Of a stretch of 9,441 nucleotides of DNA, positions 1-4,099 are shown piece by piece. Numbering within the stretch: position 1 is the stretch's first letter; the number at the start of each line of letters is the position of its first letter. Where the stretch lies: NCBI GenBank assembly GCA_003235605.1, contig QJVU01000736.1, positions 1-9,441 on the forward strand, given 5' to 3'. The stretch comes from Planctomycetota bacterium (GTDB lineage Bacteria > Planctomycetota > UBA1135 > UBA2386). The translations under genes and the position numbers were made by a program. A model generated the notes under the pieces. The model did no database searches and was not told where the DNA came from. It saw only the letters and a list, made by a program, of their open reading frames with translations.

Positions 1-736
1 CCGGGTAGATCAGGTGCTGGCACAGCTCCCGCGCTGGTTGGCGAAGCCGGTAGTACTCGCCGCGGAAGGGAATCACCCGGATCCGCGGGCGGTGGCCCGC
101 CAGCATGGCCAGACGGTCGGCGTGGAGGCCCGCGCAGTTGATGCCCAGGCGCGCGGTGAAGTCTCCGGCGGTGGTCTCGGCCACGACCTCGCGAGCTCCG
201 TCCCGCAGTCCCACGACCCGGGCCCTCAGGATCACCGTGCCTCCGGCCGCCTCCACCAGGCGGTGAAGCGTGCTCACCACTGCCCGGAAGTCCACGACAC
301 CTGTGTCAGGCACATGGATGGCGCCGACGCCGCGGGCGTGGGGCTCCAGGTCGAGGAGCCGGTCGGGTCCGATACGCTCGCAACGCACCCCGTTGGCCCT
401 GCCACGCGCCAGCAGCGCATCCAGCCGCGGCACCTCGTCCTTGGTCACGGCAACGATCACCTTGCCGCAGGTATGGTGGCGGACACCGTGCTCCCGGCAG
501 AACGCCTCCATCGCCTGCCGGCCGGCGGTGCAGGTTCTGGCCTTGAGGGAACCGGGGCGGTAGTAGATCCCCGAGTGCAGCACGCCGGAGTTGCGACCCG
601 ACTGGTGCCGGCCGGGGGCCGCTTCCTTCTCGAGGACAGTGACCCTGATGCCCGGGTGGCGGCGCTGCAGCTGCCACGCGGTGGCGAGACCCAGGATGCC
701 TCCCCCCACGACAAGTACGTCAGAGGCGTTCGTCAC
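1..736 (-). CDS. lhgO: L-2-hydroxyglutarate oxidase LhgO, N-terminal 245 codons (runs off left edge)
   Basis: FAD-dependent oxidoreductase of the DAO fold. In this family it oxidises L-2-hydroxyglutarate to 2-oxoglutarate and feeds electrons to the quinone pool at the inner face of the membrane. Seen here: a Rossmann dinucleotide motif GGGILG at residues 11-16, then HQSGRNSGVLHSGIYYRPGS at about 44-63, which is the family signature, then CGKVIVAV, a GVVDFRAV segment and NCAGLHADR followed by IPFRGEYYRLR. The translation stops at LIYP at the window edge. The family is usually about 400 residues, so roughly the last 150 are missing. The start is GTG at 734-736, directly before the Rossmann strand (TNASDVLVVGGG); I see no in-frame ATG and no clear Shine-Dalgarno sequence. 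It lies 45 nt after the TlpA-like gene on the same strand and is probably co-transcribed with it, although the two products have no obvious metabolic link. Confidence 0.9.
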   Translation of the reverse strand, partial: MTNASDVLVVGGGILGLATAWQLQRRHPGIRVTVLEKEAAPGRHQSGRNSGVLHSGIYYRPGSLKARTCTAGRQAMEAFCREHGVRHHTCGKVIVAVTKDEVPRLDALLARGRANGVRCERIGPDRLLDLEPHARGVGAIHVPDTGVVDFRAVVSTLHRLVEAAGGTVILRARVVGLRDGAREVVAETTAGDFTARLGINCAGLHADRLAMLAGHRPRIRVIPFRGEYYRLRQPARELCQHLIYP

Positions 737-781
737 TGGAAGGTCTCGACAGGGCACACCTGCAGCACGTGACCGCCGCCG

Positions 782-1921
782 TCAGAACCGTCGCTGCTGC
801 TGGCCCTCGTCGAGAAGCTCCTGGACGCGTTGTTCGAGGTCGTCCCCCAGGTTGCTGTAGCGCACCTTGCCCTTGCGATCGATCAGGAACGTCGCCGGAA
901 TCGCGCGAATGCCGTTTTCCTTGGCCAGGCGGGTGTCCCAGCCACCTCCTTCGTAGACGACCGGCCAGTCCATGCCGAGCTTCTTCATCGTGGCACGGAC
1001 CTTCTTCATGGTCTCGCCGGCAGGGTCCGGCGGGACCAACTCGCCCCCGCGCTTCTGGCCGGGCTCCCGGTCGAGGCTGACCCCGATCACGACCAGGCCC
1101 CTGTCCTTGAGCTTGCTGTGGACACCCACGATCGTGGGCATCTTGCGAATACAAGGGGCGCACCAGGTGGCCCAGAAGTCGACCAGCACCACCTTGCCCG
1201 TGAGATCCCGGATGTCGATCCCCTCGCCGTCGATGCTCTTGGCCCGGAAGGGTTGAATCGTGCTGGCCCGGCCTCGAACCCTGGCCGCTGCGACGCGCCC
1301 GCCAGCCGACCGGTCTCTGGCCCCCGACCGGCCTCTCGTCCCATAGAGGGCGGCGAGCAGTTCCTGCTTGGCGCTGTCGGAGAGCCCGCTGTCTGCGAGC
1401 ATGGCGGCCAACAGTTCGTTCAGGTAGCGGGTATTGGCCTTCTTCGTGGGGTCGCGCATGAGGCTGCTGGCCATCACCCGGTAGACCCGCGTCGGATCGG
1501 AGGAGAGCCTGAGGGCGAGGGGCACGACCTTGCGGGCCAAGTCCAGGTTGTCGTCCTGGACTGCGCCCCATGCGTACGCCATCAGGATGCGCCCGACGTG
1601 CTCGTTGAACTTGTCCGTCGGCAGCGTCGGCTGCTTCGAAAGGCTCCCGAACAGCTCCTCGCCTGCGCGATCCCGGTGACCATTCAGGTAGAGCGGAATC
1701 GCCTTGGTGAACGCATAGTCACCCAGGTCGATCTTGGTCTTCTCCACCCGCTCGAGCCATGCCATCATCCTGGCGTTGCGCTCAGGCCATTGCTCCCGCG
1801 GGAACCGGGTGGTGGTCAGCTCGGTGATTTCCCGGACTGCTTGGTCCCGGCTCCACTCCTGGGCCGAGAGAAGCGCAGAGGTGACGACAAACGCAAAGGC
1901 GACAATGAGTTGGGGCTTCAT
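782..1921 (-). CDS. Secreted TlpA/ResA-like thioredoxin-fold protein with extra N-terminal helical domain
   Basis: A 379-residue exported thiol-disulfide oxidoreductase-type protein. Residues 1-20 form a Sec signal peptide (Lys near the N-terminus, hydrophobic core, cleavage probably at LLSA/QEW). Residues about 21-192 are a helix-rich region I do not recognise. Residues 193-219 are an Arg/Gly/Ala-rich linker. Residues about 221-379 are the thioredoxin domain: KVVLVDFWATWCAPC with the redox pair C254/C257, and the cis-proline in AIPATF at P342. The segment between them is extended by a charged insertion, as is common in TlpA/ResA proteins. Family members reduce or isomerise disulfides outside the cytoplasm, for example in cytochrome c maturation, but no cytochrome genes are nearby, so the substrate is unknown. 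The start is ATG 1919-1921: it opens the signal peptide and has GGAG five bases upstream. The frame stays open further upstream to 2191, but that stretch runs through the hairpin array and is non-coding in character. Confidence 0.88.
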   Translation of the reverse strand: MKPQLIVAFAFVVTSALLSAQEWSRDQAVREITELTTTRFPREQWPERNARMMAWLERVEKTKIDLGDYAFTKAIPLYLNGHRDRAGEELFGSLSKQPTLPTDKFNEHVGRILMAYAWGAVQDDNLDLARKVVPLALRLSSDPTRVYRVMASSLMRDPTKKANTRYLNELLAAMLADSGLSDSAKQELLAALYGTRGRSGARDRSAGGRVAAARVRGRASTIQPFRAKSIDGEGIDIRDLTGKVVLVDFWATWCAPCIRKMPTIVGVHSKLKDRGLVVIGVSLDREPGQKRGGELVPPDPAGETMKKVRATMKKLGMDWPVVYEGGGWDTRLAKENGIRAIPATFLIDRKGKVRYSNLGDDLEQRVQELLDEGQQQRRF

Positions 1922-2067
1922 GGGGTCTCCATGGGGGGCCACTGGGTCACGGCTGGGGGGGGCATTATCCGACCCACGTGCAGGTTCGTGGCGCGTTATC
2001 TCCCGACCGGGGGTCGGTTCGATGGCGATGCCCGCAGGAATCGTTACCATCGGAAAGTGGAACGCGA

Positions 2068-2102
2068 GGGCTGCTCCTGCCTGCCCCATATCGAAGCAGC
2101 CC
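2068..2102 (-). repeat. Conserved-loop hairpin A
   Basis: First of three hairpins (in plus coordinates) sharing one loop. The outer stem GGGCTGCT (2068-2075) pairs perfectly with AGCAGCCC (2095-2102). Inside it are a C/A mismatch (2076/2094) and a closing C-G pair (2077/2093). The loop TGCCTGCCCCATATC (2078-2092) is identical to that of hairpin B. It is the shortest copy and the nearest to the TlpA-like gene, ending 146 nt upstream of its start codon. In minus-strand RNA the loop reads GAUAUGGGGCAGGCA. No T-run follows in either direction. Confidence 0.75.
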
Positions 2103-2125
2103 CCGGTTCCGGATCCCAGAAGGGT

Positions 2126-2156
2126 GCGCGGCCCCGGCGAGTAGCCGGGGCCGCGC
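2126..2156 (-). terminator. Perfect 13-bp GC hairpin with GAGTA/TACTC loop, possible terminator
   Basis: GCGCGGCCCCGGC (2126-2138) and GCCGGGGCCGCGC (2144-2156) pair without mismatch around a 5-nt loop, GAGTA. It lies between conserved-loop hairpins A and B but lacks their loop, so it is a different element. Its strength suggests a transcription stop for the secreted-protein gene upstream. However, minus-strand transcription would continue into ACCCTTCTGG, which is not a U-tract; the plus-strand exit (TGTTTAGTT) is slightly T-richer. The terminator role is inferred from the hairpin alone. Confidence 0.4.
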
Positions 2157-2166
2157 TGTTTAGTTC

Positions 2167-2207
2167 CGGGAGCCGCCCCTGCCTGCCCCATATCGGGGCG
2201 GCTCCCG
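2167..2207 (-). repeat. Conserved-loop hairpin B
   Basis: A perfect 13-bp stem: CGGGAGCCGCCCC (2167-2179) pairs with GGGGCGGCTCCCG (2195-2207). The 15-nt loop TGCCTGCCCCATATC (2180-2194) is base-for-base the loop of hairpin A, although apart from the loop-closing C-rich bases the stems are unrelated in sequence. It is the cleanest copy, with no mismatch. Confidence 0.78.
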
Positions 2208-2224
2208 TCACAGAAAGCGAATGA

Positions 2225-2274
2225 GAACCGCGGGCCGCCCCTGCCTGCCCCATATTCGGGACGGCCCGCGGTTC
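2225..2274 (-). repeat. Conserved-loop hairpin C
   Basis: The outer 13-bp stem GAACCGCGGGCCG (2225-2237) pairs perfectly with CGGCCCGCGGTTC (2262-2274). Then comes one C/A mismatch (2238/2261) and three inner pairs, CCC (2239-2241) with GGG (2258-2260). The loop TGCCTGCCCCATATTC (2242-2257) matches the other two except for one extra T. It is the first hairpin after the secreted-protein gene, starting 48 nt past its stop codon in the direction of transcription. It could form the transcript's 3' end, though no U-tract follows. Confidence 0.78.
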
Positions 2275-2322: not shown

Positions 2323-4086
2323 TCACCGGGGCGAGAACACCTCCAACCGGACGAGTTCCTGTTCCAGGGTGATATAACCCGCGTGCATCCCGAACAGACC
2401 GGGTCTGGTCGGGTCAGTGTCTGGTTTTTCTGACACCCGGTGGGCCAGAGTGCTGAGGTCGGCGGCAAAAACCCCGGCCACCTTCCGGTCCCAGACGCCC
2501 AGATGCTTGAGGAACTGGCGCACCGTGGTGTCGTGCTGGGTGCGGGCCTGACGCCCCTTCACGCGGGACGCCTGCGGGGCCTCCGCGATGATCTGCTCCA
2601 TGGTGCTTTGGTCGAAGGTGAAGTAGACCGCATCGCCCACCGCAGCCAGCAGGGCATAGTCCCGGCCGCCAAACCGGCCCCGGTAGCTATGGCCGCCGAA
2701 ACCCGGGCTTGCGATCTCGAGCACCTCCCTTCCGGACTCCAGCTGCCGGCTCCGGGCCCGACCGCTGGTGGCCAAGGCTTTCTTGAGATCCGCAATCAGC
2801 TCCCGGGCCTGCTTTCCGGTCCTGGCCTGGAAGGAATAGGCCACGCGGGGCTTCACGCCGTCGCCGGACAACAAGAGGACCTGGGCACTGCCGACCTTGC
2901 CCAACCGGCGGATGATCTGGCCGCGGACATCCACTCCCGCTTGGAACGCGTGGCCGAAGATCCACGCCTGCAACTGCAGCATCCGTGGACTTCTGGCAGC
3001 TGGCCCAAGGAGCTTGTTGGGGTCCACCGCCACAGCCAGGCAGCCCAGCGCACCGGGTTGCAGACCCGCAAGCAGTTGCTGAGGCTTGGCTGCCTCCACC
3101 GCCTGCAACCAGCCGTCGTGCTCGGGCTCCGGCCAGTGAGGCGGCTGCCAATGGGGCAGGTGCCTCTTCGGCCTCCGACCCAACAACACGCTGGTCACGA
3201 AGCCGTCAACGCCCTTCTTCGCGGGTCGGACCACCAGCAGCAACCGGTCCGTGTCGCCCAGGCCCGACCAGAAGAAGGGCAAACCGAGCTCCTTCTCCAC
3301 CAGGGTGGAGAGCTGTGGCCGCCTTGGTCCCAGCCTTGCCCAATGGGCGTAGAGCATCACCGCGCCCTCGGGTACGTCGATGCGTTTGCGCAGGTCCTTG
3401 TAGCGAGTGTTCTGGGAGAGCACCGGGGCGCTTGCCGCCGTCTCGGGGCTGATGGCCTGGTCGAGCGCCTGGGGATCGTTGCTGACCACCAGGTTGTCTT
3501 CGACCAGCGCCACCTCCACTGCGTTCTGGGGGTCTTGCGGGAGAGGTTGGCGGCTGCTGGAGGCCTTCAGTTGGTAGACCTGCCGACCGTGGAGCGTGCG
3601 GGCGGGTACTGCGAGGTCCTGGTCGTGCAGCACCTTGGCCACCTGTTCGGCGCTGGCCTTGGGTAGCTGGCAGCGGAAGATCAGGGACGCCGTCTCGGTG
3701 GGCGCGTTGATCCCCGGCACCATCTTGGTCAGAGCGAGCTCCAGGTCCTCGGACCTGTTGGAAAGCAGCCGTGCCAGGGGGCGCAGCAGGGCACCCGAGC
3801 CCTGGGCGCCAAACCCCCCGGGAGTTCGCGGTCCCAAGAGCTTCTGCAGGACGGGATCGTCCAGCAGCGGCAGCGGGTCCACGAGCGCTGGCCCCAGGCG
3901 AGAAAGATAGATCAGGGGGTTCTCGAGCCGGTTCTCCAGGCGCCACCTGCCATCCGTCGCGGTGCGTGTGGTCGCGACCTCAGCGGACGTGCCCGGCTCC
4001 TGGCCCAACGCCAGCGGAGCAAGGGGCAGTACCGCCGACAGGACGAGGGCTGGGCTGCGCAGGGGAGAGGGGGACCCAGAGGGCAT
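2323..4086 (-). CDS. Secreted protein of unknown function (587 aa), putative sigma-54-driven target
   Basis: I do not recognise the family. Residues 1-28 look like a Sec signal peptide (Arg10, hydrophobic stretch ALVLSAVLPLAPLAL, cleavage probably after ALG). The remaining roughly 560 residues have no further membrane segment, no lipobox and no catalytic motif I can name. They alternate strand-like and helix-like stretches, as in the large exported proteins of the DUF3352 kind found in Planctomycetota and cyanobacteria; that comparison is an impression, not a match. The mature part appears to contain no cysteine and is rich in Arg, Gln, Leu and Pro. I chose ATG 4084-4086 because GGAG sits four bases upstream. 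An in-frame TTG four codons earlier (4098) has no ribosome site. A -24/-12 promoter lies immediately upstream, and the sigma-54 activator gene is the next gene upstream, which suggests conditional expression. Hairpin C follows the stop. Confidence 0.8.
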   Translation of the reverse strand: MPSGSPSPLRSPALVLSAVLPLAPLALGQEPGTSAEVATTRTATDGRWRLENRLENPLIYLSRLGPALVDPLPLLDDPVLQKLLGPRTPGGFGAQGSGALLRPLARLLSNRSEDLELALTKMVPGINAPTETASLIFRCQLPKASAEQVAKVLHDQDLAVPARTLHGRQVYQLKASSSRQPLPQDPQNAVEVALVEDNLVVSNDPQALDQAISPETAASAPVLSQNTRYKDLRKRIDVPEGAVMLYAHWARLGPRRPQLSTLVEKELGLPFFWSGLGDTDRLLLVVRPAKKGVDGFVTSVLLGRRPKRHLPHWQPPHWPEPEHDGWLQAVEAAKPQQLLAGLQPGALGCLAVAVDPNKLLGPAARSPRMLQLQAWIFGHAFQAGVDVRGQIIRRLGKVGSAQVLLLSGDGVKPRVAYSFQARTGKQARELIADLKKALATSGRARSRQLESGREVLEIASPGFGGHSYRGRFGGRDYALLAAVGDAVYFTFDQSTMEQIIAEAPQASRVKGRQARTQHDTTVRQFLKHLGVWDRKVAGVFAADLSTLAHRVSEKPDTDPTRPGLFGMHAGYITLEQELVRLEVFSPR

Positions 4087-4099
4087 CGGGCTCCGCAAG

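What the first reader, a model, noticed from the sequence alone, without database searches (positions are those of the whole stretch)
2068..2274. Three hairpins with an invariant loop and unrelated but fully paired stems
Hairpins at 2068-2102, 2167-2207 and 2225-2274 carry the same loop, TGCCTGCCCCATATC (one extra T in the last), in the same orientation. Their stems (GGGCTGCT, CGGGAGCCGCCCC, GAACCGCGGGCCG) differ in sequence but pair perfectly over 8, 13 and 13 bp. Ordinary duplication would keep the stems, and ordinary terminators would not keep a 15-nt loop, so selection appears to act on loop sequence plus stem pairing. This is the covariation pattern of a structured RNA family or of hairpins recognised by a protein. 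Minus-strand RNA shows GAUAUGGGGCAGGCA in each loop. They could mark the 3' end of the secreted-protein transcript, a leader element of the TlpA-like gene, or a separate small RNA. I know of no named element with this loop; novelty is inference.
Basis: partly seen in the sequence, partly recalled or inferred. Interest (0 to 1): 0.82.

Follow-up and report, generated by a model that had tools for sequence, protein, structure and literature searches.

The report
New repeated-loop RNA in Planctomycetota
A stretch between two genes of an uncultured planctomycete most likely makes an undescribed RNA whose hairpins show the same ten-letter loop several times on stems that change but keep pairing; relatives keep it at the same place in the genome, which suggests a regulator that works through that loop.

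Summary
The three hairpins are real, but their stems are not unrelated: registered on the closing pair they are copies of one repeat that differ by compensatory changes. A covariance model of the three found the element in relatives, downstream of lysA. A three-way-junction model (R2) matched 24 of 154 genomes of one Planctomycetota class, one locus each; two more genomes have simple hairpins seen only by R1. Across 27 loci there are 55 loop copies, 49 exactly GGGGCAGGCA, on stems of very different sequence. In 23 of those loci the hairpin is arm P2 of a three-way junction, often two in tandem, the last followed by a T-rich tract. G.U outnumber A.C mismatches 116 to 36, which fixes the strand. 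Neighbouring genes vary (lon, glpK or TlpA-like downstream; DUF3352 or nifU upstream), so it is no leader of TlpA. No Rfam family matched. Best reading: a structured noncoding RNA whose repeated loops dock a conserved partner, probably a protein (CsrB-like logic, other motif). The family is strongly supported; transcript ends, partner and function are inferred.

The parts
2059..2110 (-). Hairpin H1: core 2065-2105 (13 pairs counting G.U), outer GGAAC/GUUCC beyond a bulge
2167..2207 (-). Hairpin H2, 13 perfect pairs
2225..2274 (-). Hairpin H3, 17 pairs counting one G.U
2078..2087 (-). Loop motif GGGGCAGGCA of H1
   Evidence: conserved across relatives
2180..2189 (-). Loop motif GGGGCAGGCA of H2
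2242..2251 (-). Loop motif GGGGCAGGCA of H3
2126..2156 (.). Fourth hairpin, 13 perfect pairs, 5-nt loop without the motif; belongs to the region, role unknown
2323..4098 (-). Gene upstream of the RNA (secreted protein, called DUF3352-like after a relative; no Pfam hit of its own); a relative of it is upstream in 22 of 27 loci, window included
782..1921 (-). Gene downstream in the window: TlpA/thioredoxin-like (AhpC-TSA, Redoxin); not conserved at this place (start at 1921 chosen by me)

Best explanation
The region encodes a structured RNA, read on the minus strand, that displays the loop GGGGCAGGCA three times on rigid hairpins. SHOWN by comparison: one locus per genome in a clade of one Planctomycetota class, one strand, a near-invariant loop on covarying stems, 1-4 loop copies per locus, and in most relatives a three-way-junction scaffold (P1, P2 with the loop, P3) with a T-rich tract after the last P1. 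INFERRED: it is a trans-acting noncoding RNA that ends at that tract; the loops are docking sites for a conserved sequence-specific partner, most likely an RNA-binding protein, and the copies give avidity or titrate the partner (the logic of CsrB/CsrC with CsrA, with another motif and presumably another protein). I put the RNA family at about 0.93; the confidence below is for the docking or titration mechanism.
For: 55 loop copies in 27 loci, 49 GGGGCAGGCA, 2 GGGGCAGGTA, 2 CGGGCAGGCG, 1 AGGGCAGGCA, 1 CGGGCAGGCA. 44 of 48 motif copies in the first scan lie at RNA loci, with stems of 5-19 pairs; the 4 others have 2-4. Stem pairs change type at every position. Second units: 13 of 27 pairs changed on both sides, 0 of 500 shuffles; 96.5% of cells paired against 32-44% when slid. 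First units: 7 of 26 RNAalifold pairs changed on both sides. Strand: 116 G.U against 36 A.C with both scored alike, more G.U in 20 loci, more A.C in 1. T-rich tract: 5.9 T in 12 nt after the last P1 against 1.9 per 12 further on, 23 loci. Outside the locus, 37 of 58 occurrences of the motif complement in 10 genomes showed no such hairpin (best contiguous stem 7 pairs once, otherwise 5 or fewer). Multiple copies of one loop on unlike stems point to recognition of the loop itself. Hfq was not found in 12 of 12 genomes, which speaks a little against ordinary antisense pairing.
Against: No transcript, protein partner or phenotype is known; the host is uncultured. No promoter was found: the upstream alignment shows no clear conserved motif, and a terminator-like site between DUF3352 and the RNA was seen in 6 of 18 loci against 1.5 expected from mononucleotide shuffles (inconclusive). 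In the window itself no minus-strand terminator-like site was found and R2 matched none of its three copies at E 0.05. Only 35 of 55 loop copies have a stem better than 95% of stems made with the 3' flank of another locus (medians 20.9 and 9.9); swapped flanks share conserved inner pairs, so this control is strict. Sense frames are often open: only 2 of 27 loci have a stop in all three, so coding is not excluded by stops, though the loops lie in different phases in 15 of 21 loci with two or more. Units in A2 and A3 were picked after folding, which favours pairing. The excess of the complement elsewhere (37 against 14 for the reversed pattern) is unexplained. Nothing tells a protein from a small-molecule or RNA partner.
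Confidence: 0.45

Rival explanations
1. Trans-acting antisense small RNA with several copies of one seed: the GGGGCAGGCA loops pair with C-rich stretches in mRNAs.
For: Repeated identical loops are known from antisense RNAs (recalled: RNAIII, 6C, cuckoo RNAs). The loop complement TGCCTGCCCCA occurs 37 times outside the RNA loci in 10 genomes against 14 for the reversed pattern.
Against: The 37 places show no shared target: pairwise comparison of 800-nt stretches gave two weak tblastx pairs (E 3e-6, 9e-6) and two short blastn matches (22 and 29 nt), not pursued. Hfq not found in 12 of 12 genomes; control rings in 5 of 14 known genomes; genome completeness is not told. Shorter seeds were not tested.
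Confidence: 0.25
2. Cis-acting 3' UTR or terminator element of the operon that ends in DUF3352 or nifU: it ends transcription and protects the mRNA.
For: It lies right after the last gene in the same direction, and the last P1 is followed by a T-rich tract.
Against: A terminator does not need an invariant 10-nt loop or three-way junctions (inference). The upstream gene changes while the RNA stays (DUF3352 in 22 of 27 loci, nifU in 4, sigma in 1).
Confidence: 0.15
3. Leader or riboswitch of the gene downstream.
For: lon lies downstream in 22 of 27 loci.
Against: glpK comes next in 8 loci, TlpA-like in the window, and no lon was found downstream in L057. The T-rich tract separates the RNA from the gene.
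Confidence: 0.06
4. DNA element or mobile repeat (REP-like palindromes, protein-binding hairpins in DNA).
For: Simple repeated hairpins in an intergenic region.
Against: One locus per genome at the thresholds used, no loop hairpin at 37 other places, conserved neighbourhood, and strand-biased wobble pairs, not expected of DNA.
Confidence: 0.05

Closest known systems
CsrB/RsmB (RF00018) and CsrC
   Same: Noncoding RNA with one short motif repeated in hairpin loops; works by titrating a protein (abstract start, PMC5027483).
   Different: Motif there is GGA; the conserved loop here has no GGA. No Rfam match. Far fewer copies (1-4 against many, recalled).
6C RNA (actinobacteria) and cuckoo/CcsR-type RNAs (alphaproteobacteria)
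   Same: Conserved loop sequence shown on hairpins (recalled; only search listings seen).
   Different: Their loops are C-rich or anti-Shine-Dalgarno (recalled); this one is G-rich and occurs in another phylum.
pan and STAXI motifs
   Same: Repeated structured units in tandem; pan is thought to bind a protein (passages, PMC2864571).
   Different: Stems with bulged A, or pseudoknots; upstream of pan genes or near DNA-handling genes. Neither is reported by Rfam here.
Rhodopirellula-1 motif
   Same: A candidate RNA listed for Planctomycetes and Proteobacteria (table row, PMC2864571).
   Different: Its consensus could not be seen, so identity is not formally excluded; no Rfam number stands in that table row.

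Membership tests
Any Rfam 15 family | Match at or above the family's gathering score | tested here: not met
   Window: 4 sub-threshold matches, best over the hairpins sucA-II 22.5 bits against 70. 13 relative loci: none at gathering score. L064 4400-4900: two sub-threshold matches. Other loci were not scanned.
CsrB/RsmB/RsmY-type RNA | GGA in the hairpin loops | tested here: not met
   Loop letters: no GGA within the motif; GGA arises only where a stem arm follows.
CsrB/RsmB/RsmY-type RNA | Titrates CsrA | not testable with these tools
   CsrA genes were not searched for.
Hfq-dependent antisense sRNA | Hfq in the host | tested here: not met
   0 of 12 genomes; completeness unknown.
Hfq-dependent antisense sRNA | Conserved complementary target | tested here: inconclusive
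   Full 11-nt complement only, 10 genomes; no shared target seen.
Intrinsic terminator | GC-rich stem followed by a U-tract on the sense strand | tested here: inconclusive
   T-rich after the last P1 in relatives; none on the minus strand of the window region.
REP/RAYT-type mobile palindromes | Many dispersed copies per genome | tested here: not met
   One locus in each of 24 matched genomes; the window's own genome is not held.
Rhodopirellula-1 motif | Published consensus | not testable with these tools
   Only a table row seen.

The most novel reading that the evidence does not exclude
An unreported, clade-specific regulatory RNA, one locus to a genome, that titrates an unknown sequence-specific RNA-binding protein through repeated GGGGCAGGCA loops in bacteria where Hfq was not detected; its loops sat on plain tandem hairpins first and were later built into tandem three-way junctions in one sub-clade.
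Probability: 0.35. Interest if true: 0.85.

Novelty: new variant of a known kind. Interest (0 to 1): 0.72.

Why it matters
Few small RNAs are catalogued for the Planctomycetes-Verrucomicrobia-Chlamydiae group: a table passage of one review lists 8 for it against 345 for Proteobacteria (PMC9029176, passage; the column head was not in view). A strongly structured RNA with a near-invariant loop, kept at one locus in a clade, is a ready bait for finding its partner, and so a way into post-transcriptional control in a phylum where little is known. The step from plain hairpins to three-way junctions around a fixed loop would be a natural case of a scaffold evolving around a binding motif.

Tried and rejected
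Exact 18-mer in genome contigs: 17 hits in scattered taxa, no complementary flanks on inspection, i.e. chance; the pattern held letters (ATAT and stem) that vary in relatives. DUF3352 protein in a phylum sample: 0 of 392; relatives' versions are only 24-31% identical, so lysA was used. Viral contigs: no relative of the DUF3352 protein. Non-syntenic low R1 hits such as L083, L087 and L091 score about alike on both strands and were set aside as GC hairpins. No conserved promoter seen. Leader of TlpA: rejected. CsrA: rejected by motif. Kissing between loops: the loop is not self-complementary (sequence). Paper searches gave no description of the element; the library holds open-licence papers only, and the 2017 set of 224 candidate RNAs was not read (only papers that cite it were listed).

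Caveats on counts. One search covers 52 hairpins chosen for 7 or more pairs, 4 of them outside the RNA loci, so its pairing rates are biased; one search is unfiltered. The total of 26 genomes is 24 by R2 plus G398 and G457, seen by R1 only. R2 misses the simple-hairpin form (0 in G398), so the phylum sample (2 of 274, both in that class) does not test for that form outside the 154 genomes, where alone R1 was run. Searches over 40 genomes use stricter filters and score few of the first-look candidates. G384, G431, G437 and G451 of the lysA clade gave no R2 hit; for the first three the contig ends soon after lysA or DUF3352. The four hairpin-only labels in the tree are mine; the first copy in L078 also folds with P1- and P3-like stems, and R2 matched L078 weakly. 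The routine named dinuc_shuffle shuffles single letters. The binomial p ignores relatedness.

Full report
The three hairpins exist. The 16-mer CCTGCCTGCCCCATAT occurs three times; 0.10 matches are expected with up to three mismatches and none of 200 shuffles reaches three. The stems were mis-registered: aligned on the closing pair they are copies of one 41-42-nt repeat. On the minus strand all 13 pairs form in all three copies (39 of 39 cells), and 4 of 13 pairs have changed on both sides. The plus-strand mismatches in that alignment are A.C, which is G.U on the minus strand.

WHERE IT SITS. The genes assigned by Pfam all lie on the minus strand: ybeY, a sigma factor, lysA, a NifU-like gene, a sigma54 activator, then a secreted gene without Pfam hit (called DUF3352-like after a relative), the hairpins, and a thioredoxin/TlpA-like gene. 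Protein relatives that bear a name are from Planctomycetes. No own genome is held.

RELATIVES. An 18-mer scan of genome contigs gave 17 chance hits. Relatives were located by lysA (53-62% identity for the 25 of 154 genomes at E 1e-130). R1, the model of the three window hairpins, run on the 154 held genomes of that order, matched 38 at E 1 or better; the five best genomes (G409, G443, G457, G455, G398) have it downstream of lysA or beside a DUF3352 gene, while some weaker hits (e.g. G260, G489) lie elsewhere. The order and the class hold the same 154 genomes. R2, built from 13 second units, matches 24 of 154 at E 0.1, one or two units at a single locus each. In a phylum sample it matches 2 of 274, both in that class, but R2 misses the simple-hairpin form, so that form was not sought outside the 154.

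ANATOMY. 27 loci, window included, hold 55 loop copies, 49 of them GGGGCAGGCA. In the first scan 44 of 48 motif copies lay at RNA loci with stems of 5-19 pairs; the other 4 had 2-4. The loop letters before the motif vary. In 23 loci the hairpin is arm P2 of a three-way junction with an outer P1 (10-19 pairs in the 32 units kept) and a short P3. L064 folds to -131.8 kcal/mol, z -6.6. Both-side changes are found in 13 of 30 RNAalifold pairs of the second units and 7 of 26 of the first units. With the intraloop pairs left out, 13 of 27 pairs of the second units are changed on both sides, which 0 of 500 shuffles reach, and sliding the partner drops pairing from 96.5% to 32-44%; P2 as aligned there pairs in 88.5% of cells. 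Twelve letters after the last P1 hold 5.9 T on average against 1.9 per 12 further on, 23 loci. A strict control, pairing each 5' flank with a 3' flank of another locus, leaves 35 of 55 copies above its 95% point.

STRAND. With G.U and A.C scored alike, the stems hold 116 G.U and 36 A.C; G.U is commoner in 20 loci, A.C in 1. The RNA is thus most likely read in the direction of its neighbours. Coding is not excluded by stop codons (2 of 27 loci have one in every sense frame), but the loops lie in different phases in 15 of 21 loci with two or more.

CONTEXT. Upstream is DUF3352 in 22 of 27 loci, nifU in four (L070, L071, L072, L077), sigma in L125. Downstream, lon is present in 22 of 27 and glpK comes next in 8; L065, L123 and L125 end before lon could be seen; L057 and the window lack it (Pfam for four lon and one glpK). 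In L082 and L122 the RNA lies with DUF3352 and lon in another neighbourhood. A leader of one gene is therefore unlikely.

HISTORY. In a lysA tree of 34 rows the four lineages I labelled hairpin-only (window, G398, G457, G409) lie outside the three-way-junction rows, one change, support 86/88; the window groups with G398, 96/95. Plain tandem hairpins are the likely older form, though the root is a midpoint.

MECHANISM. Selection holds the loop letters and, for the stems, mainly the pairing. The loop complement occurs 58 times in 10 genomes: 21 are the RNA's own loops and 37 lie elsewhere, against 14 for the reversed pattern. Those 37 show no clear shared gene (two weak tblastx pairs, two short blastn matches) and no comparable hairpin. 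Hfq was not found in 12 of 12 genomes. I favour a protein partner, with antisense pairing as main rival; nothing experimental decides.

KNOWN OR NEW. No Rfam family reached its cut-off in the window or in the 13 relative loci scanned. Paper searches found no description; Rhodopirellula-1 could not be compared. It works like repeated-loop regulatory RNAs such as CsrB, but is not a member of that family by the tests made.

Noticed in passing
window 2126-2156: A fourth, perfect 13-bp hairpin with a 5-nt loop (GAGTA on the plus strand) lies between H1 and H2; it lacks the loop motif and is followed by TGTTTAG on the plus strand.
   Followed up: partly
first units in L058, L061-L066, L069, L070, L073-L075, L080, L081: In first units P1 (CGGATGCA/TGCATCCG) and P3 (near GTGTGTTGCGCGG) are nearly invariant in sequence in the 14 aligned units, unlike P2 and unlike second units, so unit 1 may have a further sequence-specific role.
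   Followed up: no
L082, L122: The second copy has a plain long hairpin with the variant loop CGGGCAGGC and no three-way junction, next to a first copy with one.
   Followed up: no
ten genomes: The loop complement TGCCTGCCCCA occurs 37 times outside the RNA locus against 14 for the reversed pattern; composition or real targets, not settled.
   Followed up: partly
relatives' loci: The order ybeY-sigma-lysA-nifU-(sigma54 activator-DUF3352)-RNA-(glpK)-lon recurs across the clade although the proteins are only about 60% identical or less.
   Followed up: partly
window 2-757 (-): An open frame running off the window looks by eye like an FAD-dependent oxidoreductase (recalled resemblance, not searched).
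   Followed up: no
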